Below are positions 41,073 to 59,610 of a DNA stretch of 64,000 bases, one piece after another; positions within the stretch are counted from its first letter, which is position 1, and each line of letters begins with the position of its first letter. The stretch comes from Desulfobacteraceae bacterium Eth-SRB2. Lineage in GTDB: Bacteria; Desulfobacterota; Desulfobacteria; Desulfobacterales; UBA11574. The stretch spans positions 136,091-200,090 of the forward strand of contig RPGQ01000077.1 of assembly GCA_004193595.1 (NCBI GenBank), written 5' to 3'. Position numbers and translations under genes: made by a program. Under the pieces are notes generated by a model. That model searched no databases. It saw only the letters and a program-made list of their open reading frames with translations, and was not told where the DNA came from.

Positions 41073-43751
41073 TTATAATGCTAACTTAAAAAAGTCCATT
41101 AATTCATCATTTTTCATCTCGGTTATCCAGGCATCGCCGGTGCCGGCAACAACGTCTCGTGACAACTTGGCTTTTTCTTCTAACATTTTATCAATCCTCT
41201 CTTCTACAGTAGCTTTGGTCAAAAATTTGTGCACAATAACATTCTTTTTTTGTCCAATCCTGAACGCCCGGTCGGTTGCCTGGTTTTCTACGGCAGGATT
41301 CCACCAGCGGTCAAAATGAATTACATGGTTTGCCTCTGTCAAATTCAACCCGACCCCGCCGACTTTCAGGGATAATACCATAAATGGAACATAACGTTGG
41401 CTTTGAAATTGCTCAATAATCATCTTTCTTTTACCTACGGCCACACTTCCATGCAAAATCAGGCCTTTTCGATTAAAGATGCTTTCCAAAAAATCATGAA
41501 GCGGTTCCGTTATTTCCTTAAATTGTGTAAAAACCAGGACCTTTTCTCTTTTTTCGTATATTGTTTCACAAATTTCACGAAGCCTTAAAAACTTGCCGCT
41601 GTCTTTTTCTTCAAATTCTCCGGTTCCGATATATTGATCCGGGTGATTGCAGATCTGCTTGAATTTCATAAGGGAAGAAAGGATCAGTCCCTTTCTTTGA
41701 ATCCCTTCTGTTTCCGCGATGACCCCCTTTATCTCTTTGATCACATTTTCATATAAAAGGATTTGTTTTTTGCTAAGAGGGGCATATGTTTTCATCTCAA
41801 TCTTTTCCGGGAGGTCGGATATGACCGACCTATCGCTTTTCAAGCGCCTCAAAATGTATGGGCTGATAATTTTACGCAGTCTTGAATATCCGGAGGTGTC
41901 TTGATTTAAGTTTTTTGAAAATTTTTTAAACTCTCCGGCATTCCCGAGCAATCCCGGATTTAAAAAATCGAACAAGGACCAGAGGTCTGACAGCCGGTTC
42001 TCAATAGGAGTGCCTGTCATTACAATCCTGTTCCAGGAAGAGAGCTTTTTTATTGCCTTGGCCTGTTTGGTCCCCGGATTTTTGATGGCCTGGGCCTCAT
42101 CTAAAATGATGTAGTTCCACGAGTATGATTGGAGCCATTGATACTTTTGAACCAAGGCATATGTTGTAATAACAAGATCAAATCCATCCAGTGATTCCTT
42201 GTCTTTTGGCAGGTTCTTTTTCCCTGAATTAGTTCCCGGATGCGCGACATAAAATTTGATGTCAGGTGAAAAACGCCTAATTTCATTTTCCCAGTTGGCA
42301 ATAAGGGAGGCAGGAATTACCAAGAGACTTGCTTTATATGGTTTTCCTGATTCCTTGAGTTTGGATTTCATGAAATTTAAAAAGGCCAGTGCCTGGATGG
42401 TCTTGCCAAGACCCATATCATCTGCCAGACAGGCTCCAAACTGTAAGGAATGCAAGAAATACAACCAGCTTAGCCCTTTCTGTTGATAATCCCTTAACTT
42501 GCCATTAAATGCCTTGCCGGGTTTTACTGACGTAATAAGTTCAGGATTTAGCAGTTTCCGGATGACCGATTTTAGCCATTTTCCGTTTGAAATGCCGCAA
42601 TCTATTTCTTGCGCATTAACATCCAGTAATTTCTCGGGCGCAAGCTGCATCCTAAGGGCTTCCTTTAAGCTAAAACCCTCTTTAGCCATCATTTTTTTTG
42701 CTTTTTCATAGGCATCCAATGTCTGTTTCAGCTTTTCCGGATCAACCGCCACCCATTTGTTTTTAATGAAGGCCAGCCCTTCTGATTCACTTAATAATTG
42801 CCTTGCTTCCTTTTCAGAGATTTGCGTATCCCCGAGAAACAAGCGGGCATTGAAATTTAAGATTGCATCCATGCCGACTAAAGAGGGCTTTGAATCACCA
42901 ACGCTAAAATTTAGTCTTACACTTGCTTTATTGCCTTTCCACCAATTTGGAATTCTGCACAAAATACCTGACTCTTCGTAAACAGGAACCTCTTTTAAAA
43001 AAGAAAATGCATCTCCTGCAGTCCAGACAAAGGGATGAAACAGTTCTCCGGTTTCAAGGAGCTCTGCAATTAGCGGGCTCCTTGCCGCAGCTGTATGAAC
43101 TGTTGCAAGAAGCTCCAGCAGCTTTTCATTATCATTTGCATATTCCTGCAACGCGTGTTTGAGAGGGAGATGTTTGGATCTTCCCTGTTTGTTTATCCCG
43201 GTTGAATACGTTGCCATAAAAGCAAACGGGTACTCGTTACTCTTATTTTCTACAAGATGGAAAAATACTCTGCCCACAAGGTGCACATTTGGGCTGTAAA
43301 TCCTGATAAAATCTTCAGCGGTTCCGTCATAAGATTTAATCGCAAAGGCAAAAGAATGGTTTAATCTTGCCCATACAGCTTCAAGCAATCCGGTGTTTAA
43401 GTATTCCGAACCAATCATCAATGGGGCCTGCTCTACATGCAGCCTCAATTCATCTTTTTCTATCAAAAGCGTGACGTTATGACGCAGGATTTCCAGATCA
43501 GGTGTTTGTCTCAATTTCGTGGCAAAGGCCCCGGTAAAATTTCGCCAGTAATCAAGGGAAGGGGAAAGAGAGACCTGATGATCGCAAAAGCCCAAAAACA
43601 GAAGCCATGAATCGTTATTGGCAGAGAAACGGTTGTATATTTCTTGTTGTAACAGTCGGCAGCTCTTGTTTATGGCCCCCTCTGTGTCCGTCCATTCCAA
43701 CTGGAGGGAACCGTTTGGCATAACAACAACGTTTAATTCTTGATTCAGCAT
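41073..43751 (-). CDS. SNF2-family DEAD/DEAH helicase
   Basis: The 892-residue ATP-dependent DNA translocase has a long N-terminal SNF2-associated region (about 1-420). The two RecA-like domains follow: motif I ADDMGLGKTIQALAFL, Ia LLVIPASLIANWENEI, II YIILDEAQAIKNPGTKQAKA, III VMTGTPIENRLSDLWSLFDFLNPG, V LSLKVGGVGLNLTEANHVIHFDRWWNPAVENQATDRAFRIGQ and a C-terminal KATVEERI. All core motifs intact. The pair with the SWIM protein is common in bacteria; links to repair or defence are proposed but I cannot choose. Confidence 0.95.
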   Translation of the reverse strand: MLNQELNVVVMPNGSLQLEWTDTEGAINKSCRLLQQEIYNRFSANNDSWLLFLGFCDHQVSLSPSLDYWRNFTGAFATKLRQTPDLEILRHNVTLLIEKDELRLHVEQAPLMIGSEYLNTGLLEAVWARLNHSFAFAIKSYDGTAEDFIRIYSPNVHLVGRVFFHLVENKSNEYPFAFMATYSTGINKQGRSKHLPLKHALQEYANDNEKLLELLATVHTAAARSPLIAELLETGELFHPFVWTAGDAFSFLKEVPVYEESGILCRIPNWWKGNKASVRLNFSVGDSKPSLVGMDAILNFNARLFLGDTQISEKEARQLLSESEGLAFIKNKWVAVDPEKLKQTLDAYEKAKKMMAKEGFSLKEALRMQLAPEKLLDVNAQEIDCGISNGKWLKSVIRKLLNPELITSVKPGKAFNGKLRDYQQKGLSWLYFLHSLQFGACLADDMGLGKTIQALAFLNFMKSKLKESGKPYKASLLVIPASLIANWENEIRRFSPDIKFYVAHPGTNSGKKNLPKDKESLDGFDLVITTYALVQKYQWLQSYSWNYIILDEAQAIKNPGTKQAKAIKKLSSWNRIVMTGTPIENRLSDLWSLFDFLNPGLLGNAGEFKKFSKNLNQDTSGYSRLRKIISPYILRRLKSDRSVISDLPEKIEMKTYAPLSKKQILLYENVIKEIKGVIAETEGIQRKGLILSSLMKFKQICNHPDQYIGTGEFEEKDSGKFLRLREICETIYEKREKVLVFTQFKEITEPLHDFLESIFNRKGLILHGSVAVGKRKMIIEQFQSQRYVPFMVLSLKVGGVGLNLTEANHVIHFDRWWNPAVENQATDRAFRIGQKKNVIVHKFLTKATVEERIDKMLEEKAKLSRDVVAGTGDAWITEMKNDELMDFFKLAL

Positions 43752-43922
43752 TTCTTGGATGGGCCAACCCTCATGTATTTGACTTGCTCACTCCAGAATC
43801 TTTCCAACAGCCAATCTTTTATTTCGTCTAATTGTCAGCGTGTGGCTATTAGTGAATAACATATCAATATGGCATTGTAATTATTGAAAAATTATCTCTT
43901 TCGAAAAAAGTCCATGCAGGGC

Positions 43923-44363
43923 TTAGGTAATATACATTGTATCTACCCTATCCCGACGTTTTAGAAATTCGATTTGTTCATCGATTGTCGAAAACCCGGA
44001 AAGATCCAGTTCCTCAAACTCATCAGGACCGGTATTGGTCTTCATCCTAACATTTTGAACAATTTCTTCCAATTGTTCTTTTGAAATTTTGGGAACTTTG
44101 GTAATCGAGCTTTTTTGCGGTACACCCTTTTTGATTTTGAAATTATAGCTGACCATTTCCAACATGCCGCTAATTTTTTCCTTGGTCAAAATTCGATACT
44201 CAAAATGATAATGACGCCCGGCTATGGGACGAAAATAAAAGAATTTATACAGCCGTTCACCCTTTTTTACGCGGATTAAATAGTGATCCTGTTCAGGGAG
44301 TGGCTTCTTTGTCTTAACGCTTTTGCGTCGGTTTTTCATATTATATACCGCATATAACTTCAC
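43923..44363 (-). CDS. Unknown protein downstream of fic
   Basis: The 146-residue product is basic at its N-terminus (MKNRRKSVKTKKPLPEQDHYL may be the true start, 44339) and acidic at its end (GPDEFEELDLSGFSTIDEQIEFLKRRDRVDTMYIT). Predicted mixed alpha/beta, no TM segment. It lies 38 bases after fic on the same strand and is preserved with it in the damaged inverted copy, so the two probably form a unit; an antitoxin or target role is only a guess. No family recognised. Confidence 0.65.
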   Translation of the reverse strand: MKLYAVYNMKNRRKSVKTKKPLPEQDHYLIRVKKGERLYKFFYFRPIAGRHYHFEYRILTKEKISGMLEMVSYNFKIKKGVPQKSSITKVPKISKEQLEEIVQNVRMKTNTGPDEFEELDLSGFSTIDEQIEFLKRRDRVDTMYIT

Positions 44364-44401
44364 GAATGAATAGTGTACTTTTTACTCCACGTTGTTTTTC
44401 C

Positions 44402-45541
44402 TTAAAACAAAAGCTGATAACGGCTTCCCGCTCCTCGTCCAAGCAGTTGGAGAAAATCTTGTTTGGTTAGCGTATTCAGCGCATATTGCACTGTCCGGCG
44501 TGGAAGCCCTGTCTCAGTTACGATATCAGCTACTTTCAAACGCTTCTCCTTACCGGCTTTAAAGCAGCTTAAAACAGCCAGCGACGATTCGGAAAGCTTC
44601 TGTAAGTTTGTATATTTCTGGCGGTAAATTTCAACGTCAGCCAGGGAAGATTTAATAACTTTGATAAAAAACCAGCCCAACGGTTCCAAATTATAATGTG
44701 TAGAATCTGCTTGAAACTTACCGGCCGAACATTGATGCAAAACAGTATAATATAGGGAGCGGTTTTGTTCAATATGGCGGTCAACGGCAACAAAAGAGCT
44801 GATACCCGTTAAATATTTATCTTTTGACTGTAATAAAGCCAGTATAAAAAGAGCCCGTCCGAGCCTTCCATTGCCATCCTGGAAAGGGTGAATGGACAGA
44901 AATCGAAAAACAAACTCGGTGGCAACCAGCAGCGGCCAGGGATGTTTAAGGATGGTATCATTATACCATTTAACCAGTTCTGCCATAGCCGTACTGGTAA
45001 TAATACCCGGCGGTGCCGGATCTAGAACCACTCGATGTTCCCCGGTTTCGTGATTGATAAAAACCACTCGGTTCGACGCTGTTTTATATCCTCCGGCATG
45101 ACTTTCAGCCTCAGGATAATAGCGCAGTAAATCATGATGAAGGCCACGGGTGACAGCTTCGGTTAAAGGGAAAAGCTCATCGGCTTGCAGATAAATGGTT
45201 GTCAATACCTGTCGGCAGCCGACAACCTCCTCAATACTTCGTTCTCTATCTTTTGAGAGTTTGTCCAGAATAAAAGTCCTTTTTTCATCATATGCGGTGG
45301 TTTTGCCGTTCTCATTCAAGACCGTATCTACCCATTCGATTTCCTGATCTGTCAAGACGGCATTTTCTATCCTGGTAGACGCTCCAATATTGCTAATGAG
45401 AGCAAAACGATTCAAATATTTCGCCTCGTCTCCAGATAAGTCCTCCAGGTCTCTATATGTTTCCACAAACAATTCCTGGAGCATTTTCAATTCATTTTCT
45501 ATTTTGGTGCTGGGGGCAAAAGAGAGCATACTAACCCGCAT
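44402..45541 (-). CDS. fic: Fic family protein with C-terminal HTH
   Basis: Fic enzymes transfer AMP or another phosphate-linked group to target hydroxyls. The 379-residue product carries the full catalytic motif HPFQDGNGRLGR (about 216-227) and an N-terminal inhibitory motif STRIEN, fitting (S/T)xxxE(G/N), so it is self-inhibited class II. A C-terminal winged-helix DNA-binding part (KVADIVTETGLPRRTVQYALNTL, about 345) suggests it can also act as a regulator. Two matching palindromes lie upstream, which fits autoregulation. Transcribed leftward, ahead of the 43923 gene. Confidence 0.93.
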   Translation of the reverse strand: MRVSMLSFAPSTKIENELKMLQELFVETYRDLEDLSGDEAKYLNRFALISNIGASTRIENAVLTDQEIEWVDTVLNENGKTTAYDEKRTFILDKLSKDRERSIEEVVGCRQVLTTIYLQADELFPLTEAVTRGLHHDLLRYYPEAESHAGGYKTASNRVVFINHETGEHRVVLDPAPPGIITSTAMAELVKWYNDTILKHPWPLLVATEFVFRFLSIHPFQDGNGRLGRALFILALLQSKDKYLTGISSFVAVDRHIEQNRSLYYTVLHQCSAGKFQADSTHYNLEPLGWFFIKVIKSSLADVEIYRQKYTNLQKLSESSLAVLSCFKAGKEKRLKVADIVTETGLPRRTVQYALNTLTKQDFLQLLGRGAGSRYQLLF

Positions 45542-45620
45542 TCCTCATTTTATATTAAAGCCGCATGATAAAACCGGAATCGTTTCCATTACAGGTAATT
45601 CTGAAATGTAACATACCATA

Positions 45621-45673
45621 TCGCGCAACAATGCGCAATATAATTTATTCGCTGTTTGCGCATTGTTGCGCAA
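45621..45673 (-). promoter_or_regulatory. Paired palindromic operators upstream of fic
   Basis: TTGCGCATTGTTGCGCAA (45656-45673, exact TTGCGCA inverted repeat) and TCGCGCAACAATGCGCAA (45621-45638) have centres 35 bases apart. Between them, read on the minus strand, is AATAAATTATATTG, a plausible -10 region. The spacing puts the sites around the fic promoter; the HTH of the Fic protein is the obvious candidate binder. Confidence 0.7.
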
Positions 45674-45792
45674 TGTCTGGGGTTGGGAACAAGTTGAGAT
45701 AACGCCTGAAAAGGATATTTTAGGGGCATGAATAGCCATTGGTGGAAAATTTATCTGTTTATTTTTATTGGCTATTCGTTCATTCACTTACA
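45674..45792. other. Fragment between transposase and fic
   Basis: The 45545-45787 frame starts with MNERIANKNKQINF, matching the start of the DUF6398 gene (MSVNERISNKKQ) for about 12 codons, and then diverges. I read it as the transposase's downstream junction sequence, not a gene. Confidence 0.5.
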
Positions 45793-46464
45793 TCACCCTA
45801 TCGTTTCTACAAAATATGCTTTATCCCAGATCTCGGCGTCTCCACTAATCTTATCTCTTAATAGAGGAAATTTCTCCAGTATGGCATCGTTGGAAAATTG
45901 TTTAATTCTGTGGACGATTTCCTCTATGGAAAACTCGCCATCCGATTCTACATATAAGTGTACATGATCCGGTGCCAGATAGAGCAGATCCACAAAGCCC
46001 CCGGCTTGTTCACTGCACCTCAGGAAGGTATCACTAACAAAATCAAACAAGTTATTGGCAGGGCTAAAAACAGATCTTCTGAGGGACACATTACAGACAA
46101 AATGGTATTTGAGTTGAACGTATACGCCGTCCGGGTCACGGCCTAATTTCTGTAAGGCTAAGGCCTTTTCATATTTAATCTTGTCAGAATTGAGTAAATC
46201 CAAGAAGAACTTTTCCTTAATTTTTCGCGAGGAACTATAATCACTTACAAACCCTTTGTTTTTTGATGGACCTACAAGTTTGAGCATAGGCTGAAAGGCA
46301 TGACATTCAAAACCTGACCTATCCTGAATGCATCGGTTCAATTCACATAAAACCGATTCCTGAAATTCCAACTCACGACAAAAATTACAATTTCTATGAT
46401 AGCGTGACGCATTTGATTTGACGCATTCCATGCACTTTTCGGGCAGTTCATTTGAAGCTGGCAT
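45793..46464 (-). mobile_element. Y1 (IS200/IS605-type) transposase with Cys-rich N-terminus
   Basis: HUH single-strand transposase. The 223-residue product begins with a zinc-finger-like segment (CMECVKSNASRYHRNCNFCRELEF), then the family core: VQLKYHFVCNVSLRRSVF, GFVDLLYLAPDHVHLYVESDGEFSIEEIVHRIKQFS (HVH is the HUH histidine pair), and the C-terminal block AYFVETIG. It looks complete. Relatives of this type are often domesticated and mobilise short palindromes; no hairpin end is clear here. The tail is copied at 39450-39560. Confidence 0.88.
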
Positions 46465-46499
46465 CTTTTCCTTTCACGGTTGATTCTAAAACCATCCTT

Positions 46500-46681
46500 A
46501 GGGAAATTGTTTTTACGGCATGTCAAAATTTCGTTCGATCACAATCTTGCTAATATTTCATTTACTTTGATTCGTATTTGGCCTGATCTTCACGGATTTC
46601 GATTTGATCAGCAGGTATTTTTACTACTTTTCCATCCCGCCAGATAACTATAGGATCGATTAACAACGTTGTCTATATCGA
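46500..46681 (-). other. Fragmentary short ORF beside the transposase
   Basis: On the minus strand LLIDPIVIWRDGKVVKIPADQIEIREDQAKYESK ends at a stop near 46560; then MKYYK/QDCDRT-like text (MKYYKIVIERNFDMPK in the right arm) is broken here by stops. These look like two short remnants of genes preceding the transposase, present in both arms. Confidence 0.45.
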
Positions 46682-47623
46682 TTATGTCGGATCGGTGACT
46701 GTCGATAGCTTGGAGCCTATATACCCTATTCGCATCATTCCAGGCCCTATAGTCGGATCAAAATATATTCGCCATGCTCCGGGTGTCATCCGACCGTGCC
46801 AAGTAAAAGTGATTTCGTTTTCACCGTGGCAATTGAAGGTTCTATCTTTGCTATATTTTTGCATTGTTGATTCGCTTTCAACAGTTGCCTTAAAGGGAAG
46901 ATTATCAGGTGTAAAGGCTCCTTCATTCCAAGCTGAACAATAAGTTTGAAGTTCAAAAAGCCGCTTAACAGTTTGTCTAAATAGGGGATCACCAGGTTGT
47001 AACGGAAGAATCTGTTTTGCTACATGATTACAAAAAATTAAATTGGAAAACAGCTCTTCTCTTCGATTCCAAAGGTCTTCGCCATTTTGAACACCGGCTT
47101 TCAGTCTATTTTCAATCCATTCTGCAAGCCCATCAACATGAAAAGGATTTGATGCATGTGGAATCTGTACACATTGGGACATTAAATCTCCAATATCATC
47201 AAGCCATTGGGTTTTTATATCAATCATGTTCACTTCCCAATCTTTCGAAGACGGTAGGCTAATTGAGAGGCTTTCAAGAAGATAAGCTATTCCAAAACCA
47301 TACGACCGTACGTCCTAGTAAAAAAAATCCTGAGCCAGCATATCGTTTTTAATTTCAGGAAGGTCGTCCAGCTGAGGGTATTGAGAAATGAGAGATCTGA
47401 AATACCTTCTAGCCTCCAGATCGACGTCTCCATCGTTGCGCCATCTCGCTAAAGGATATTCAAAAGTGAGCAATGTGCTGTTCACATCGATATGCGTCCT
47501 CAAAACACGGTTGACACCGGCAACCGACGCTGATCGAATTGTATTGATAAAGCCGACCATCCATTGCCGTGCTTCTTGGACATCTTTTGCAGGAGTATCA
47601 ATGGACAACTCGTTGAATACCAT
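46682..47623 (-). pseudogene. Unknown gene split by a single in-frame TAG
   Basis: ORFs 47315-47680 and 46682-47233 are one gene: between them runs DVRSYGFGIAYLLESLSISLPSSKDWEVN in the same frame, interrupted only by TAG at 47315-47317. The full reading (about 313 codons, start MVFNELSIDTPAKDVQEARQWM at 47623) ends RIYFDPTIGPGMMRIGYIGSKL. In the right arm this gene directly follows the DUF3696 ATPase with its own ribosome site (AAAGGAG), so it is the third gene of that set. I recall homologues beside such ATPases in cyanobacteria and others; no function is known. The extension upstream of 47623 is not part of it. Confidence 0.75.
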
Positions 47624-48654: not shown

Positions 48655-49693
48655 CGCCTGATACCCATCAATTTTTTCAAACAAAAGCCGTTTTGGCGGT
48701 TAATCAAGCGCTGACTACCCGAAACTGGCTCATCGGATTTTATATTGCCGAGTTTGAACAAAGCGGTGCAGACCGGGCTCAATACGGCAAGCGGGCCGAT
48801 GGAAATTAAGGTGGCGCAACAACATATTAAAGGGATGTCCTTAAGGAACTCTCCCAAAGCCGTTCCGGACAATTCTTTACTTTGCATTATCCTGGAATAA
48901 GCAGTCACCGACTGCCCTTGAAAAACGGAAAATAAAAAGAAATCCTCGGCATAAATCCCGGAGAGTTAATTGAGAAAGTATCCTTTACACATTTGATTGA
49001 GCTTTCCAAAATAGTCGATCGCTTAAAAAGAGCCTTTTACGAAATTCAGAAATCGCATTTAAAGGCGGCAACTGGTCGAAGTCTCTGAGAACTGAAAAGA
49101 CAGATAACGGTTTCTCCATATTCTTTGAGCGCCCGGCCTGTCAAAAATAAAACTAAGCTGGAGTATAAAATCAAACAGGTCAAGCTGTTCTACCTGGGCG
49201 ATGTTGTCCAAGACCCATTCTTTTTTGAATTCTTAGGCTTAAAACAAAGCGAGGTTGTAAAGGAAAGCGACCTTGAAAGGGCGCTTTTAGTTAACTTGCA
49301 GGTCTTTATCCTGGAACTCGGGCATGGCTTCTGTTTTGAAGCACGCCACAAGCGGATTACCATCGGCGGGGAATATTTTTTTGTTGACCTGGTTTTTTAT
49401 CACAGAATATTAAAATGCCATATCCTGATAGAATTAAAACCCAGGAGTTCAATCATGCCAATTTAGGCCAGCTAAACACTTACCTGAATTACTATAAAAA
49501 GCATGAAATGCAGGATAATGATAATCCTCCGGTAGGCATTCTACTTTGCACGGACAAAAATCATTCTCTGGTTGAATATGCCACCGCCGGAATGGACAGC
49601 AATCTTTTTGTCTCGAAATATATGGTTGTTTTGCCTTCAAACGACGAATTACAGAGATTTATTGAACACGCAATTTCAAAGCGGGAATATTGA
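48655..49693 (+). pseudogene. YhcG/DUF1016 PD-(D/E)xK nuclease, frameshifted
   Basis: Across frames the order is VNQALTTRNWLIGFYIAEFEQSGADRAQYGKR, IEKVSFTHLIELSKIVDRLKRAFYEI, RSLRELKRQI, VVQDPFFFEFLGL, LQVFILELGHGFCFEARHKRITIGGEYFFVDLVFYHR, LIELK, then NLGQLNTYLNYYKKHEM and GILLCTDKNHSLVEYAT. This is a complete YhcG-family protein (N-terminal DUF1016 plus nuclease domain) broken by at least four frameshifts, one within the IELK...NHANLGQL join near 49445. Family members often accompany restriction genes. The stop overlaps the methylase start (TGATG). Confidence 0.85.
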
Positions 49694-52600
49694 TGAGTTT
49701 ACAATATTTTAATGATCAGGAGTTTTATTTTTCCTTAAAAAAATTTTTTAAAGATCTGAAAATCCCCGTTCATTATATGACCGAGCAGCCTGCTTTGGCC
49801 AAAGATATTATTTCAAATACCTTTAAGCCCCAAAATCCCGCTCACCAGATGATCGATGATGTTTATTTTTTAGGAATGGTGGATGACAGGGCCTTTAACA
49901 ATCAACCCTCTGCAATTGAAAGCGATCGATTAAAAGAAAAAGACTACGATGGACTTTTGATATTCGGCGTCTCCCTTGACCGGGAAGGCGGAAAGCTCCC
50001 GACACGAGGCCAAATGGCAAGAATAGTTAGCGACCAACCGGGAATTTCACTATACCCCGGTTGTCATTGTGTTTAAGTACTGCCGTTATATTTGGTTTTC
50101 AAACTGCGAAAGAATCCCTTACAAACAGGAAATTTCGAAGGTGAAAAGCCGGCAAAGCGTCCCGCCTGGCGATACTGACAATTTCAAATACCTACCGGCT
50201 TACTTCAAAGATACTGCAAAAAATTCAGCCATCCCTACTTCCCGGCAAAGGTCGTCAAATTAATTTTGGTTCACAGCCAACTACTGGTATGGAAGTTTCA
50301 GCGTTTCCCTGCTGAGCAAGCGTTTTTACCAGGATTTGTCCAACTGGTATTTCTAAATTCCTGGAGGCACGTCGAGTTCTGACGATGCGCACCGAAGTCG
50401 AAATGCGACCAGCGTCATCCGCCTGATAACCCGTTTGATGTTTGTCTGGTTCTTAAAAGAAAAGAAACTGGTCCCGGATGTGCTCTTTGACAAAGATGAG
50501 CTTGATGAACATCTGAATTACAAAGACTATAATGACAGCACCTATTACAAAGCGATTTTACAGAATCTTTTTTTTGCGACATTAAATACCAAAATGAAAA
50601 AGGATGATCCTGAAAGTCGCAAATTTGTCAATCGGCGGGTATTGGCATCTGTGGTTTTATGATACGAAAGATTTTAAAGACAAGAAATCGCGCCATTAAA
50701 CCAGTTTGAGACCATCCCTTTTTTAAACGGCGGACTTCCGGCTCGAAAACCTGATACTATAGCTCAGCCAACGAAACCTGTGATAGATCGCTTTCCCAAA
50801 CTGGCCGGTGTAATGAAAAGTGCGCTTCTGAAGCCGGACATTCTTCGGTGCTGAAGACCAGATCGATTTAAGCGATGTTTACGGAAGTAAAAAGCGGAAA
50901 AATGAATCCGTCAGAGGAATCATCCATATTTTAAATTCCTATAAATTCACTATCGCTGAAAATACGCCCATTGAAGAAGAAATCGCCCTTGACCCGGAGC
51001 TGTTGAGCAAGGTGTTTGAAAATTTGCTGGCCAGCTACAACCCGGAAACACGCACCACGGCACGCAAACAAACCGGGTCGTTTTACACACCCAGGGAAAT
51101 TGTCAACTACATGGTGGATGAATCCCTGATCGCCTACCTTGAAGACAAATTAATCAAATGTTATCAAAAGAAGTCCGGGCTTATTCCCAAAACGCCTCTG
51201 TCTCAGAAAAGCATGTTCGGTAAACAAAAACCAACACAAACCAAAATCACAGCTTCCGCTCCCAAGATATCCGATAAAGTAACAAAAGAGATCAACGACA
51301 AACTCCGCCATCTGCTTTCTTATACCGAGGAAGATCATCTTTTTTCCGATAGCGAAGTAAACGTCATCATGGCTGCCCTGGACGATGCCAAAATCCTGGA
51401 TCCGGCTTGCGGGTCCGGTGCTTTCCCCATGGGTATCTTGCACAAGATGGTGCATATTCTTTCTAAGCTCGATCCTCAAAACAAACAGTGGAAGCATCGG
51501 CAAATCGAAAACCAGACGCGGCAAATTAAGCAGGATGTCGCTTATGCAGAAAAGATCAAAGATAACAAAGCCAGACAAAAAGCATTGGATGAACTGGAAG
51601 AACGGCTGACCACGGTTAACGATGCTTTTGATACCAATGAACTGGATTTCGGCCGAAAACTCTATCTGATCGAAAACTGCATCTTCGGCGTAGATATCCA
51701 GCCCATTGCCGTGCAGATTGCAAAACTCCGTTTTTTTATTTCACTGATTGTCGATCAAATCATTGATGAAAATAAGGAAAACCTGGGGATTATACCTCTC
51801 CCGAACCTTGAGACCAAATTTGTTGCAGCCAATACGCTGATTGGTGCCGGAAAAAGGCCAGGGATCAATTTCAAAAAACCCAAAATCACTAAAAGGAAAG
51901 AACTGGCCAAAGTGTTGAATTCATCTTTCAGCCCGGACAATTCAACAATTGATAAAGAAAAAATAAGCAGGCAAATAGATGAAAATCTAAGAAATGAAAT
52001 CGCCGAACTTTTAAAAAAGGACGGTTTTGCCTCTGATCTTACCAAAAAACTGGCCCATTGGAATCCTTACGATCAAAACACATTTGCTGATTTTTTTGAT
52101 ATGGAGTGGATGTTCGGAGTGAAAGATGGTTTTGATATCGTTATTATGGAAATCCTCCGTATGGAGTAAAATTTAGTTCCGAAGAGAAAAAGCTTTATAA
52201 TTCTTTATTTAGACATCAAGAATATCAACTTGATAGCTATCTCTTATTTTTAGAGAAAGGTGTTCAATTAGTTAGGGCCGGTGCTGGCATTACATATATA
52301 ATTCCCAACCCGTGGCTAACGAACCTTAAATTAAAAAAAATTAGGAGATATATGTCCAACGAAGTCACAGTATCTGGAATAACGCATTATATGCGAAAAG
52401 TATTTGATGCAGTTGTTGATAACGAAGTCGTTTTTCTAAAAAAATCCAAACCCAATAATAATATTGTAAACATAATAATTTATCAGGATAAAGATAAGTT
52501 CGATAAGTTTCAAACGGCAATCCACCCAAATACAAAACCTGTTTACCGGGATATGCGCAATGCCTGGCAGCAGGAACAAGTTCCAGCGTCGTTTTGCGTT

Positions 52601-53243
52601 CGAAGCGCCGGCAGCGAAAAATGGTATATGTTTGAAACATAAAGCGCTGTGCCGAAAATTTTCCTCTGCCAAAAGCGCAGCGAAAGTTTGAAAATCTCTG
52701 CTGTTAAAACTTCTGCATCAGAAGCGTATTTAAACCGGTTACATACTGCCAATTCTTTTATGAAAGAAAAATTCAAGCATATTTTCAACGTTCCTTAACA
52801 ACTTCCAGTTTTGCCTCGAAATGAATAATATGCATGTAATTCACTCAAGAAGTAATGAATTTAATTTGAAATATATGCTTGGTTTAATTAATTCAAATTT
52901 ATTGAATTTTTATTATCATAGTCTTAACCCTGAAATGGGAGAAGCTCTTGCAGAAGTAAAAAAAGAAAACGTCGAAAAATTAATTATAAAGAAAGCGAGT
53001 GACAAAAAGAAGAAAGGGATTATCGGTATAGTTGACAAAGTTCTAACCACCAAAAAATCAAACCCTTTAGCCGACACAATCGCTCTCGAAACCGAAATTG
53101 ACGCCCACGTTGCCCATCTTTACAATTTGACAGAAGAAGAATACGCGCTGGTTTTGAAAGAAACGAACTGCCCGACCCGTCTCCGTGGCAGACATTGGGC
53201 TAAACGTATATCGCGATATAGCTTGAAAACAAATGACAAATGA
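49693..53243 (+). pseudogene. Eco57I-type (type IIL-like) restriction-modification enzyme, frameshifted
   Basis: A single large gene of about 1,180 codons in pieces. N-terminal part SLQYFNDQEFYFSLKKFF; then FYQDLSNWYF, SVIRLITRLMFVWFLKEKKLVPDVLFDKDEL and NLFFATLN; VFENLLASYNPETRTTARKQTGSFYTPREIVNYMVDE; SAM motif I ILDPACGSGAFPMGIL; LDFGRKLYLIENCIFGVDIQPIAVQIAKLRFFISLIVDQ. Catalytic NPPYG lies across a frameshift near 52,153, followed by DSYLLFLEKGVQLVRAGAGITYIIPNPWL and a TaqI-type specificity region (ORFs 52352 and 52821) ending LYNLTEEEYALVLKE. At least five breaks. N6-adenine methylase with possible fused cleavage function. Confidence 0.85.
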
Positions 53244-54380
53244 CTACCAAACCGTTCTATCGAATAGCGAAAGACCAGAAATTTATGATGACGGTACAGG
53301 AATTGAGCCTGAAATAACAGAAAGTGATGATCAGATCACGGAGCCATTTGACCCCACACTGATTCGAGTAGAAACAAAACCGCTTTCGATGGATCTTTTA
53401 ATTTCCAGAATACGTGAAGGGGAAATTAATTTAATGCCGGATTTTCAGCGTAAGGCAGGAATTTGGAGCGATGCTGCACAAAGCCGCCTGATTGAATCTA
53501 TGCTTATACGCATTCCTCTGCCAGCCTTTTACATGGACGCTTCAGATGAGGATGAATGGCTGGTTGTTGACGGGCTAAAGGCTGACAGCAATTAATCGGT
53601 TCGTTATAGAAAAAGAACTTAAATTATCCGGCCTGGAATTTCTTCATCATCTAAGCGGGATGGGCTTTAATAAACTACCAAGGAATTTTAGGCGACGGAT
53701 CAAGGAAACCCAGGTCACTGTATATCTCATAGAAAAAGATACACCACCCGAAGTGAAGTTCAACATTTTCAAACGAATCAATACCGGAGGCCTGCCGCTT
53801 TCTTCCCAGGAGATCAGACATGCTCTCAACCAGGGGGCCGCAACCAGGATTTTAAAAAAACTTGCCGGCTCTGATGAATTTAAAAAGGCAACCGATTACG
53901 GAATTCGGGATCACAGAATGGCTGCTCAGGAATGCGTTCTTCGTTTTATGGCATTTACTTTAAAACCATACACCAGCTACAAATCTTCCGATTTTGACGG
54001 TTTCCTCAATTCTGCCATGGTGGCTATTAACAAGAAACCGGATGATGAGCTTAAAAAAAACTGGCAAGGATTCTTTCTGCTGCTGGTAATGCTTCCCGGG
54101 ATATTTTTGGCAACTATGCACCTGAAACAAGTTAAAATAAAAATAAAATGCCTGGCGAAACCCTATTAATAAAGCATTATTTGAAGCCTGGACGGTAAAC
54201 CTCAGCAGCCTTAATGACGATCAGCTTACAGAGTTAAAGCAAAAAAAGAACGAGCTGATTAATGGTTTTATAGATCTTATGAACGGTAGTAGTGGTTTCG
54301 ATAGCGCTATTTCCCAAGGTACAGTAATGTTGCAAAGGTTAAACTTCGTTTTTCTGAAATATCCAAACTCATCCAAGAGG
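53233..54380 (+). pseudogene. DUF262 (GmrSD-N type) protein, frameshifted
   Basis: Overlaps the end of the methylase gene. Blocks in order: ISRIREGEINLMPDFQRKAGIWSDAAQSRLIESMLIRIPLPAFYMD, VVDGL(Q)RLTAINRF with one base missing near 53576, FNIFKRINTGGLPLSSQEIRHALN, and C-terminal DDELKKNWQGFFLL, then NINKALFEAW-like text to about 54,380. DUF262 has a ParB-like NTPase/nuclease fold with the (D)GQQR and NTGG motifs. Two frameshifts (about 53,576 and 54,100) break it. Forms a set with the next ATPase. Confidence 0.85.
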
Positions 54381-54387
54381 TGTTATC

Positions 54388-55487
54388 ATGATTCGATTTA
54401 TACGTATGGAAAACTTTAAATGCTTTGAGACACAAAAGATCGAATTAGGGGCATTAACGTTGCTTTCCGGGCTAAATGGTATGGGGAAATCTACAATACT
54501 ACAGGCGCTTTTGCTGTTACGTCAATCCTATCAGCAAGGGTTGTTACAAAAAACAGGTTTGTCTTTAAATGGCGATCTCGTCAGGATTGGAACCGCCCAG
54601 GATGCTCTTTTTGAAGATGCAAAAGAGGAAAAAATAGGATTTGAGATAGGCATGGCAAACGGGAATAAAGGAAAGTGGCGATTTAACTACAATGAAGAAG
54701 CTGATGTTTTGGATCTCGACCAGCACCCTTCAAACGGTAATATTTATCGATCAAGTCTCTTTGAAGACGATTTTCATTATCTTCAGGCTGAGCGGCTCGG
54801 TCCTCGAAGATTTCGGTAAAACGTCTGCTCGGCAATAAGCAAACATAGCAGACAGGTACCAGAGGAGAGTTTGCCGCGCTAATCTTCGCCTTTATGGTAC
54901 TCTCAAATGAGTCGCTTGCACACCCAATGGCAGAATCTTGAAACTGCATCAGGCTAGCTACGTTGGAAGAAACTGTCCGCATTACGTGTATCCATCTTGC
55001 CTTGCATAAAGGCATGGACTTAGTAAATCTTGAGTACTCATTTATTACCGGCAAGCATGTAAGCAACAATTTCCGATCAACAAATGTCGGATTCGGACTT
55101 ACTTATACACTCCCTGTTATTGTTGCATTGCTTGCATCAGTCCAAGGGGCGTTAATAATGATAGAAAACCCCGAAGCGCACCTCCATCCTGAAGGTCAGG
55201 TCCGCATCGGAGAACTTATGGCACTTGCTGCACGCTGTGGGATACAAGTTGTCGTCGAATCGCACAGCGATCACATACTCAATGGCATTCGGCTCGCTGT
55301 TTATAACCATAAAATTGCGCCTGACAAAGTCATGCTTCACTATTTTGAACGAAAGGAAATTAATCAGGGAAAAACAACTGTTGTTACTCCAACAATAGAT
55401 CAAAACGGGAGAATAGACAGGTGGCCTGACGGCTTTTTCGATGTATGGGATAAATGTCTTGAAACTTTATTAACACCAAAAACCTAA
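54388..55487 (+). pseudogene. DUF3696 AAA ATPase (SMC/OLD-like), frameshifted
   Basis: N-terminal half (54388-54819): RMENFKCFETQKIELGALTLLSGLNGMGKSTILQALLLLRQSY, a Walker A of ABC/SMC type. C-terminal half (55020-55487): VGFGLTYTLPVIVALLASVQGALIMIENPEAHLHPEGQVRIGELMALAARCGIQVVVESHSDHILNGIRL, with signature, Walker B (IMIENPEAHLHP) and the DUF3696 end. The middle (54,820-55,010) is out of frame. Such ATPases act with nuclease-like partners in several defence systems; here the partners are DUF262 upstream and the MVFNELS gene downstream. Confidence 0.88.
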
Positions 55488-55500
55488 AAGGAGTTTCAGA

Positions 55501-56445
55501 TGGATCTTGGAATGGTATTCAACGAGTTGTCCATTGATCTCTGCAAAAAGATGTCCAAGAAGCACGGCAATGGATGGTCGTATTTCTATCAATACACTCG
55601 ATCAGCGTCGGTTGCTGGTGTCAACTTCGTGTTTTGAGGTGGACGCATAATCGATGAACAGCACATTGCCCACTTTGAATTTCATCCTTTAGCGAGATGG
55701 CGCAACGATGAGACGTCGATCTGGAGGCTAGAAGGTATTTCTCGTGATCTCTCATTTCTCATCACCCTCAGTTGACGACCTTCCTGAAATTAAAACGATA
55801 TGTCAGTCTTCAGGATTTTTCGCGACGTACGGTCGTATTATTTTGGAATAGCTTTATCTCTTGAAAGCCTCAATTAGCCTGCTACCGCCCTCGAAAGATC
55901 AGCGAACATGATTGATATAAACCCAATGGCTTGATGATATAGATTTAATGTCCCAATGTGTACAGATTCCACATGCATCAACTCTTTCATGTTGGATGGG
56001 CCTGCATCGGATTGAAAATAGACTGAAGCCGGTGTTCAAAATGGCGGAAGACCTTTTGAATCGAAGAGAAGAGCTGTTTTCCAATTTAATTTTTTGTAAA
56101 TCATGTAGCAAAACATTCTTCCGTTACAACCTGGTGATCCCTATTTAGGACAAACTCGTTAAGCGGCTTTGAACTTCAAACTTATTGTTCAGCTTTGAAT
56201 GAAGGAGCCTTATTAATCTTGATAATCTTCCCTTTAAGGCAACTCGTTGAAAGCGAATCAACAATGCAAACATAGCAAAGATAGGAACTCTCTTTAATTG
56301 CCACGGTGAAAAAGGAAATCACTTTACTTGGCACGGTCGGATGACACCCGGAGCATGGCGAATATATTTTGATCCGACTATAGGCCTGGAATGATGCGAA
56401 TAGGGCAGGCTCCGTTATCGACAGTCACCGATCCGACATAGTTAA
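55501..56445 (+). pseudogene. Damaged copy of the unknown 46682-47623 gene
   Basis: Begins MDLGMVFNELSIDLCK after AAAGGAG, 14 bases past the ATPase stop, and follows the left-arm protein through RSASVAGVNFVF, ARWRNDE, DINPMA(W)LDDID, LMSQCVQIPHAS, ENRLKPVFKMAEDLLNRREELFSNLIFC, DNLPFKAT and GMMRIG with many frameshifts. The native context (after DUF3696) suggests this is the original genomic position of the family. Confidence 0.85.
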
Positions 56446-56639
56446 TCGATAAGGACAACGTTGTTAATCGATCCTATAGTTGGTCTGGCGGGATGGAAAA
56501 AGTAAAAATACCTGCTGATCAAATCGAAATCCGTGAAGATCAGGCCAAATACGAATCGCTAAAATGAAATATTACAAGATTGTGATCGAACGAAATTTCG
56601 ACATGCCAAAACAATTTCCCTATGATGTACTTTTAGAAC

Positions 56640-57352
56640 TCAACCGCGAAAGGAAAAGATGCCAGCTTCCAAAATGAACTGCCCGAAAAGTGCATGGAAT
56701 GTCAAATCAAATGCGTCACTATCATAGAAATTGTAAATTTTGTCGTGAGTTGGAATTTCAGGAATCGGCTCTTTATGTGAATTCGAACCGATGTTATCTA
56801 GATAGGTCAGGTTTTGAAATCGTCATGCTCTTTCAGCCTATGCCTCTAAACTTGTGGTCCATCAAAACAAAGGGTTTGTAAGTGATTATGAAGTTCCCGC
56901 GAAAAAATTAAGGAAGTTCTTCTTGGATTTACTCAATTCTGATTAAGATTAAATATGAAAAGGCCTTTAGCTTCCATAGAAATTAGGCTGTGACCTGACG
57001 GCGTATACGTTCAACTCAAAATACCATTTGCCCCTGTAATACCGTGTCCCCTCAGAAGATCTGTTTTTAGCCCTGCCAATAACTTCCAAGTTTTGATTTG
57101 TTAGTGATACCTTCCCTGAGGTGCGAACGCCGGGCTTTGTGGATCTGCTCCCCATCTTGGCACCGGACCATGTACACTTATATGTAGAATCGGATGGCGA
57201 GTTTTCCATAGAGGAATCAGTCTTCACAGAATTCTAAACCAATTCTCCAACGATGCCATAATACTAAGAAATTCTTCATTAAGAGATAAGATTAGTGGGA
57301 GACGCTCGAGATCTGATAAAGATAGCGATTTTGTAGAAACGATAGGGTGATA
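56640..57352 (+). pseudogene. Damaged copy of the Y1 transposase
   Basis: Follows the left-arm transposase (KMNCPKSAWN, HRNCKFCRELEFQESALY, RCYLDRSGFE, then the antisense-visible GFVDLL/APDHVHLYVESDGEFSIEE and FVETIG at 57,340). Several frameshifts; the HVH pair is still encoded in its local frame, but no full reading exists. Confidence 0.82.
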
Positions 57353-57479
57353 GCGGAATGAAACTAAATAGCCAATAAAAATAAACATAAATTCCTTCCA
57401 CCAATGGCTATTCATGCCTCTTAAAATATCCTTTTCAGGCGTTATCTCAACTTGTTCCCAACCCCAGAGACATTAAAAG

Positions 57480-57560
57480 CAACAATGCGCAAACAGCGAA
57501 TAAATTATATTTGCTACTGCCGGTGCCGATATGGTATGTTACATTTCCTCGGAATTACCT
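57480..57560 (+). promoter_or_regulatory. Eroded copy of the fic operator-promoter
   Basis: AGCAACAATGCGCAAACAGCGAATAAATTATATTTGCTACTGCCGG replaces the two clean TTGCGCA palindromes of 45621-45673. Only one half-site TGCGCAA remains. Confidence 0.6.
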
Positions 57561-57608
57561 GTAATGGAAACGATTCCGGTTTTATCATGCGGCTTTAATA
57601 TGTAAAAA

Positions 57609-58739
57609 TGAGGAATGCGGGTTAGTATACCTCTTTGCCCCCCAGCACCAAAAATAGAAAATGAACTGAAAAATTTGCTCCCGCAATCTGTTTGTGGAAA
57701 CATATAGAGACTCCGAGGACTATCTTCGGGAGACGAGGCGAATATTTTGAATCGTTTTGCTCCTCATTAGCAATATTTGCCGTCTACCAGGATGTTCGCT
57801 TGACAGATCAATCGAATGGCAAACGGCAAAACCACTGCATATGATGAAAAGCGACTTTTATTCCGACAAACTCTCAAAGATAGAGAGAACAGCTATTGAG
57901 AGGTTGTCGGTCATTTGATTGGTGGTATTGGATGCAAACTTCATTTATCTGTGCTTCGATGAGCTTTTCTCTTTAACCGAAGTTGTCACCGTATCTTCAC
58001 CATGATTTACTGCTTATCCTGAGGCTGGTGCTTCCACGGGAGGATATAAACAGCGCCGAACTGAGTGGTTTTTATCAATCACGAAACCGGGGAACATCGA
58101 GTGGAAAGTTCTGGTGATCCGGCACCGCCGGTATTATTACTTCAGTACGGCTATGGCAGAACTGGTTAAATGGTATAACGATACCATCCTGTTCATTCCC
58201 TGGCCGCCGCTGGTTGCTTTCACCGATTTGTTTCGATTTCTGTCCATCTTCAATTTTCCAGGATGGCAATGGAAGGCTCTTCGGACGGCTCCCTTTATAC
58301 CGGTTTTATTACAGTCAAAGATAACATTTTAACGGCATCAGCCTTGTTGCCGCTGACCGCCATATTGAACAAAACCGCCTCGCTATTATACCGTTTCGCA
58401 TCAAATGTTCGGCCGGTGTTTTGCGATTCCCAATACTATAAATTTTGGAACCGTTGGCTGGTTTCATCGCCATTAAATCTCCCCGGCTGACGCTGAAATT
58501 CCGCCAGAAACATACAAACTTCTACAGAAGCTTTCCGAATCGCTGGCTGTTTTGCTGCTTTAAAGCCAGGCGGAGAAGCGTTTGAGTAGTTGATATCGTA
58601 ATCTTGAGACAGGCTCTTAATGCCGGATAATATGCAATATGCGCTGAATACGCTAACCAAACAAGATTTTCTCCAACTGCTTGACGAGGTGAGCGGAAGC
58701 CGTTATCAGCTTTGTTTTAAGGAAAACAACGTGGAGTAA
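57609..58739 (+). pseudogene. Damaged copy of fic
   Basis: Matches the left fic gene from MRNAG/VSMLCPPAPK-like start to ELLDEVSGSRYQLCF. The catalytic region reads across frames as FNFPGWQWKALRTAPF where the intact gene has HPFQDGNGRLGRALF, so His, and the spacing, are lost. Fragments FSTAMAELVKWYNDTIL and SALLPLTAILNKTA-shadow confirm identity. Not functional as read. Confidence 0.85.
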
Positions 58740-58749
58740 AAGTACACTC

Positions 58750-59195
58750 ATTCATCTTCGTGAAGTTATATGCGGTATATAATATGAAAAACTGACGCAA
58801 AAGGTTAAGACAAAGAAGCCACTTCGAACAGGATCACCATTTAATCCGCGTAAAAGGGTGAACGGCTGTATAAATTTTCGCCTTCATCCCACAGCCGGGC
58901 GTCATTATCATTTTGAGCATCGAATTTCCTTTGACTAAGGAAAAATTAGCGGCATGTTGAAATGGTCAGCCATAATTTCAAAAATCAAAAAGGGGGTAAT
59001 CGCAAAGCTCGATTACCGTTCCTTTAAAATTTCCGCAAAAGAACAATTCAGTTGAAATTGTTCAAAATGTTAGGGATGAAGACCAATACTGGTCCTGATG
59101 AGTTTGAGGAACTGATCTTCTGGTTTCGACAATCGATGAACAAATCGAATTTCTAAAACGTCGGGATAGGGTAGATACAATGTATATTACCTAAG
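58750..59195 (+). pseudogene. Damaged copy of the 43923-44363 gene
   Basis: Starts near KLYAVYNMKN and runs through RVKG, HYHFEHR, KKGVIAKLDYRSFKISAKEQ-like text to TIDEQIEFLKRRDRVDTMYIT at 59195. The last ~20 codons are undamaged; earlier parts have several frameshifts. Confidence 0.82.
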
Positions 59196-59406
59196 CCCTG
59201 TATGACTTTTTCGAAAGAGATAATTTTTCAATACTCATAATGCCATATTGATATACATATTCACTGTTAGAGATATTGATCTACCTAAACATCGCATATG
59301 TCATAGATAATGTCCAGCCCTTTCTGACATTTTTTCAGTATCTTATATCACATTTGAACGAAACTGAAATCTTTCATAATATTTGGTCCGCACAGGTCGA
59401 AATCTT

Positions 59407-59610
59407 TCACTCCACCGGATATTTACACATCATCAATTCTTCCCGAAATAATGAAAGATTTACCCAAGAGGTAAAAGGAAAGCGAACTTCTTTATTGGAT
59501 TTCATTTTAATATAAACAACATCTACATCCCCAATAGAAATAGTAATTTTTTTAATATCTTCCTTATTAACCTGATACGTAACATCGTCATTCGTTATAC
59601 ATGTAATCAT
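59407..59610 (-). CDS. Short hypothetical protein
   Basis: 67 residues, ITCITNDDVTYQVNKEDIKKITISIGDVDVVYIKMKSNKEVRFPFTSW, a beta-rich small protein with no known motif. Codon-like composition looks real. It follows a short hydrophobic remnant on the same strand. No clear ribosome site. Confidence 0.45.
   Translation of the reverse strand: MITCITNDDVTYQVNKEDIKKITISIGDVDVVYIKMKSNKEVRFPFTSWVNLSLFREELMMCKYPVE

What the first reader, a model, noticed from the sequence alone, without database searches (positions are those of the whole stretch)
53233..56445. Three-gene set: DUF262, DUF3696 ATPase and the MVFNELS gene
DUF262 (ParB/nuclease-like), a DUF3696 AAA ATPase and an uncharacterised ~310-residue protein follow one another with 0-20 base gaps after a methylase/nuclease pair. 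The third protein starts 14 bases after the ATPase with a good ribosome site and has no known function. I recall its homologues beside similar ATPases elsewhere. Candidate compact defence system whose third member is undescribed.
Basis: partly seen in the sequence, partly recalled or inferred. Interest (0 to 1): 0.75.

Follow-up and report, generated by a model that had tools for sequence, protein, structure and literature searches.

The report
Menshen defence locus, broken in assembly
The three genes are a copy of Menshen (NsnA-NsnB-NsnC), an anti-phage system already described; as assembled here all three are unreadable, and the damage in the third gene is most likely uncorrected long-read sequencing error.

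Summary
The three genes are there in the stated order, but they are not undescribed. PADLOC profiles identify them as NsnA (DUF262), NsnB (DUF3696 ATPase) and NsnC, the three components of the anti-phage system Menshen. The 'MVFNELS' protein is NsnC (E=1.7e-84 for its cleaner copy).

Against whole homologues, NsnA shows 4 frameshifts and a stop, NsnB one frameshift and two stops, and NsnC (+ strand) at least 8 frameshifts. Positions 55512-59265 are an inverted, error-ridden duplicate of 47623-43851: 147 mismatches but 242 indels, no codon-position bias, strong strand asymmetry. The assembly holds a second patch with the same signature. This looks like unpolished long-read sequence, not evolution. 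Even the cleaner NsnC copy has an in-frame TAG and lacks its first four codons.

NsnC has a conserved N-terminus and a variable C-terminus. The type seen here is predicted to resemble RelE/YoeB toxins, but no structural match is significant.

Verdict: known system, damaged copy, low interest.

The parts
53233..54391 (+). nsnA (DUF262/GmrSD_N), frameshifted remnant
   Evidence: PADLOC NsnA 4.6e-38 and 2.8e-55 for its two pieces; Pfam PF03235; 4 frameshifts + 1 stop against L079 NsnA
54388..55487 (+). nsnB (AAA/SMC-like ATPase with DUF3696), broken around 54809-54960
   Evidence: PADLOC NsnB 3.8e-40 and 2e-62 for its two pieces; Pfam DUF3696 3e-17; 1 frameshift + 2 stops
55500..56441 (+). nsnC in its native place after nsnB; start and ribosome site clean, rest full of indels
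   Evidence: own-genome hit PDLC03879 1e-11 with 5 stops
46682..47623 (-). second nsnC copy, clean reading frame from codon 5 on, one in-frame TAG at 47315-47317, no nsnB beside it
   Evidence: PADLOC NsnC 1.7e-84 with the stop as X; 0 frameshifts, 1 stop
55512..59265 (+). error-ridden arm of an inverted repeat (copy of 47623-43851)
   Evidence: 85.3% identity; 147 mismatches, 242 indels, C<->T 76 against A<->G 15
43851..47623 (-). clean arm of the same inverted repeat: nsnC copy, Y1 transposase-like gene, Fic gene, 146-aa ORF
49125..49693 (+). DUF1016/YhcG PDDEXK nuclease C-terminal part, one frameshift (neighbour, not part of Menshen)
   Evidence: Pfam YhcG_C 3.5e-26; PADLOC PDC-S02
49690..53243 (+). 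type IIG restriction-methylase, in several frames (neighbour, not part of Menshen)
   Evidence: PADLOC REase_MTase_IIG 1.2e-29 for the 388-aa piece; frames

Best explanation
The three genes are a Menshen anti-phage operon, nsnA-nsnB-nsnC, in a defence island of a bacterium with dissimilatory sulfite reductase genes in the same window. As assembled it cannot make any of the three proteins. The damage in nsnC and on to 59265 is most likely uncorrected long-read error in an inverted copy of 47623-43851; the milder damage in nsnA, nsnB and the restriction gene may be the same kind of error or real decay. Working model for intact relatives (inferred): NsnA (ParB-like NTPase fold) and NsnB (SMC/OLD-like ATPase) sense infection and switch on NsnC, which has a conserved N-terminal part and an exchangeable C-terminal effector. 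In the type seen here the effector may have a RelE/YoeB-like fold and cut RNA, halting the infected cell.
For: Shown: PADLOC NsnA, NsnB and NsnC matches to the window's own pieces and to an intact cyanobacterial operon, 6.1e-134, 4.8e-126, 3.5e-98; same gene order, and NsnB upstream of NsnC in 26 of 31 cases. Shown: frameshifts and stops in all three genes; indels outnumber mismatches in the repeat, no codon-position bias, strand asymmetry p=5e-11, while a natural NsnB-NsnC pair shows 223 mismatches, 6 gaps and no asymmetry; a second patch with the same signature in the same assembly. Effector: shared N-terminus with different C-termini; domain model pLDDT 89.7, 13 of the 15 top PDB hits are RelE/YoeB/HigB toxins.
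Against: No reads are available, so the error origin is inferred from its pattern. nsnA and nsnB have far fewer breaks than 55512-59265 and could be truly decayed. No structural match of NsnC is significant (best E 0.19), and no sequence profile finds RelE.
Confidence: 0.85

Rival explanations
1. Real decay: a genuine Menshen operon is a pseudogene set in this lineage, and nsnC with 2.8 kb downstream was duplicated in inverted orientation, after which one copy decayed.
For: nsnA and nsnB carry only a handful of breaks, and the clean nsnC copy has an in-frame TAG. Relatives also show a truncated nsnA beside intact nsnB and nsnC.
Against: Indels outnumber substitutions (242 against 147), are spread over genes and gaps alike, and C<->T outnumbers A<->G 76 to 15. 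A second pair in the assembly has the same pattern.
Confidence: 0.1
2. The inverted repeat is a real duplication in the chromosome, and only its base quality in one arm is an artefact.
For: The right arm sits in the native NsnB-NsnC context with the first codons MDLG, and quality changes at the repeat borders 55512 and 59265, as expected if accurate reads could not be assigned to one of two identical copies.
Against: A similar inverted low-quality arm on contig C14 suggests a systematic joining artefact; the left arm joins a very broken stretch (47624 to about 49100) that has no clean copy.
Confidence: 0.4
3. A new three-gene defence system with an undescribed third member.
For: Pfam and NCBIfam have no family for the third protein.
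Against: PADLOC has several NsnC profiles that match it over its full length, and profiles for both partners.
Confidence: 0.02

Closest known systems
Menshen (NsnA-NsnB-NsnC; Millman et al. 2022; domain polymorphism, Li et al. 2025, Nucleic Acids Res. 53, gkaf357)
   Same: All three genes, their order and spacing, full-length profile matches of the intact relatives, and an NsnC with conserved N-terminus and variable C-terminus
   Different: The copy in this window is broken in all three genes, and nsnC is present twice in inverted orientation, once without nsnB
RelE/YoeB/HigB ribonuclease toxins
   Same: Predicted fold of the NsnC C-terminal domain: YoeB probability 0.69, archaeal RelE TM-score on target 0.65; invariant E88, H115 and R124 in alignment A4
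   Different: No sequence match, structural E-values not significant, extra helices before the sheet, and it is the end of a larger protein
PD-T4-2 (DUF262 component) and GmrSD
   Same: NsnA shares the DUF262 fold; second-best PADLOC match PD-T4-2_A
   Different: No DUF1524 nuclease in the operon; NsnA scores far higher against its own profile

Membership tests
Menshen | NsnA (DUF262) gene | tested here: met
   PADLOC PDLC03877 4.6e-38 and 2.8e-55 for the two pieces
Menshen | NsnB (ATPase with DUF3696) gene directly after NsnA | tested here: met
   PADLOC PDLC03878 3.8e-40 and 2e-62; ATGA overlap at 54388
Menshen | NsnC gene directly after NsnB | tested here: met
   Start at 55500, 12 bases after NsnB; PDLC03879 1.7e-84 for the clean copy of the same gene, 1e-11 for the native-place copy
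Menshen | Open reading frames able to give the three proteins | tested here: not met
   Frameshifts and stops in all three. Hence it is filed as a broken copy as assembled, not as a working system
Menshen | Protection against phage | not testable with these tools
   Needs plaque assays with an intact homologous operon
RelE/ParE toxin superfamily (NsnC C-terminal domain) | Match to a RelE/ParE sequence profile | tested here: not met
   No Pfam, NCBIfam or PDB-sequence match to RelE
RelE/ParE toxin superfamily (NsnC C-terminal domain) | RelE fold | tested here: inconclusive
   13 of the 15 top PDB hits are RelE/YoeB/HigB, best probability 0.69, but best E 0.19

The most novel reading that the evidence does not exclude
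This NsnC subtype ends in a RelE/YoeB-like RNase domain too diverged for sequence profiles, so that Menshen arms an RNA-cutting toxin as one of several exchangeable effectors. I could not check whether the 2025 Menshen paper already says this.
Probability: 0.35. Interest if true: 0.35.

Novelty: already known. Interest (0 to 1): 0.12.

Why it matters
Mainly a caution: apparently decayed or duplicated genes in this assembly can be uncorrected long-read patches, recognisable by indels outnumbering substitutions and by strand-asymmetric transitions. If the RelE-like reading of the NsnC C-terminus holds, it gives a testable effector activity for one Menshen subtype.

Tried and rejected
A viral-contig search with an intact NsnC found no relative. 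The wide alignment A1 was too diverse for a collection scan; a narrower one gave 7 loci, including cyanobacterial ones with intact NsnB-NsnC. No PDB sequence match for whole NsnC, and no significant structural match for it in PDB or viral models. The two main Menshen papers are not in the held library. I considered whether the in-frame TAG of the clean NsnC copy could be a sense codon: closest homologues have N, R or similar there, which gives no support. A paper search for a strand bias of nanopore errors gave nothing usable, so the sequencing platform remains an inference. Promoter and terminator scans found no more than shuffles give.

Full report
Observation. The window lies on a 208,392-base contig of a 5.26 Mb, 83-contig genome. 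On the + strand, 53233-56441 does hold a DUF262 gene, a DUF3696 ATPase gene and a third gene, in that order. The first two overlap at ATGA (54388-54391). The ATPase stop ends at 55487, and the third gene starts at 55500 behind AAGGAG. A DUF1016 PDDEXK nuclease and a type IIG restriction-methylase precede them.

The genes are broken. The DUF262 gene is split into 120- and 169-aa ORFs, the ATPase into 143 and 174, and the third gene has no ORF of 80 aa on its strand. Frameshift-aware alignment to intact relatives gives 4 frameshifts and a stop in the first gene, 1 frameshift and 2 stops in the second, and at least 8 frameshifts and 3 stops in the third. A clean second copy of the third gene lies on the minus strand at 47623-46682. 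It begins at codon 5, has one in-frame TAG and no ATPase beside it.

Identity. Against PADLOC the pieces match NsnA (4.6e-38, 2.8e-55), NsnB (3.8e-40, 2e-62) and, for the clean third-gene copy with its stop written as X, NsnC (1.7e-84). These are the three genes of Menshen. An intact operon of an uncultured cyanobacterium (L085) scores 6.1e-134, 4.8e-126 and 3.5e-98 against the same profiles. That Menshen has a DUF262 gene whose mutation or deletion abolishes resistance is stated in the review PMC10952713. A 2025 paper on domain polymorphism of Menshen is cited by two held papers but is not itself held. The original description (Millman et al. 2022) is known to me from citations and memory.

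In a search of 291 genomes of the same class, NsnC occurs in 20, this genome included. Of 31 matches at E up to 1e-10 outside this genome, 26 have an NsnB on the same strand 2-217 bases upstream. Two more are adjacent by eye in L025 and L026, and one starts at a contig edge. The third protein does belong with the ATPase.

Assembly quality. 55512-59265 is an inverted copy of 47623-43851 at 85.3% identity. A global alignment gives 147 mismatches and 242 indels, nearly all of 1-4 bases. Mismatches fall evenly on codon positions (38/44/43), and C<->T changes outnumber A<->G 76 to 15 (p=5e-11). As a control, a natural NsnB-NsnC pair (L069 and L070) has 223 mismatches, only 6 gaps, 89 against 93, and codon positions 85/42/96. 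A second inverted pair in the same assembly, C14:96458-100000 and C14:119108-122617, shows 144 mismatches, 133 gap runs and 65 against 21, and its poor copy has no open frame above 97 codons. I infer unpolished long-read sequence; indels that split genes in long-read metagenome assemblies are described in PMC8575027. Whether the inverted repeat is itself real cannot be told without reads. The genome has no other NsnC, so there is no intact Menshen here as assembled.

Mechanism. NsnC homologues share an N-terminal part beginning FNELS and differ in the C-terminus: L016 and L063 keep the N-terminus but end in a different domain. Two members of alignment A2 match Ntox17 only weakly (best E 0.0063). 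The C-terminal type of the window has invariant E88, H115 and R124 in alignment A4. The AlphaFold2 model of that domain (pLDDT 89.7, pTM 0.83) finds RelE, YoeB and HigB toxins as 13 of its 15 top PDB hits, none significant (best E 0.19, best probability 0.69). My working model is that NsnA and NsnB are sensor and switch and NsnC is the effector with an exchangeable toxin part, here perhaps an RNase. The switch and the RNase steps are inferred, not shown.

Verdict. But the system is known, its third member is described, and this copy is unreadable as assembled.

Noticed in passing
G000:C14:96458-100000 and C14:119108-122617 (L088, L089): A second inverted, indel-rich repeat pair in the same assembly with the same error signature; the poor copy has no open frame above 97 codons.
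   Followed up: partly
window 59265-59407: The error-ridden arm ends at a 143-base dispersed repeat also found at 99% on contigs C40 and C55; the C14 patch likewise ends beside a 196-base repeat also on C1.
   Followed up: no
window 45620-45674: 19-base inverted repeat (ATCGCGCAACAATGCGCAA / TTGCGCATTGTTGCGCAAT) just upstream of the Fic gene, operator-like; a related stretch lies at C15:9901-10012.
   Followed up: no
window 45793-46464 (-): Y1 (IS200-like) transposase domain behind a Cys-rich N-terminal extension, between the nsnC copy and a SoFic-like Fic gene.
   Followed up: no
window 41076-43751 (-): 892-aa SNF2 helicase with DUF3670, best PADLOC match ZorD; no other Zorya gene was looked for.
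   Followed up: no
L069:7281-7886 and L070:2707-3255: In two Desulfobacterales genomes NsnA is cut short at about 180-200 aa while NsnB and NsnC stay intact.
   Followed up: no
window 47624 to about 49100: Stretch with no open frame of 100 codons for most of its length, carrying scraps that look like a helicase C-terminus on the + strand; no clean copy in the genome.
   Followed up: partly
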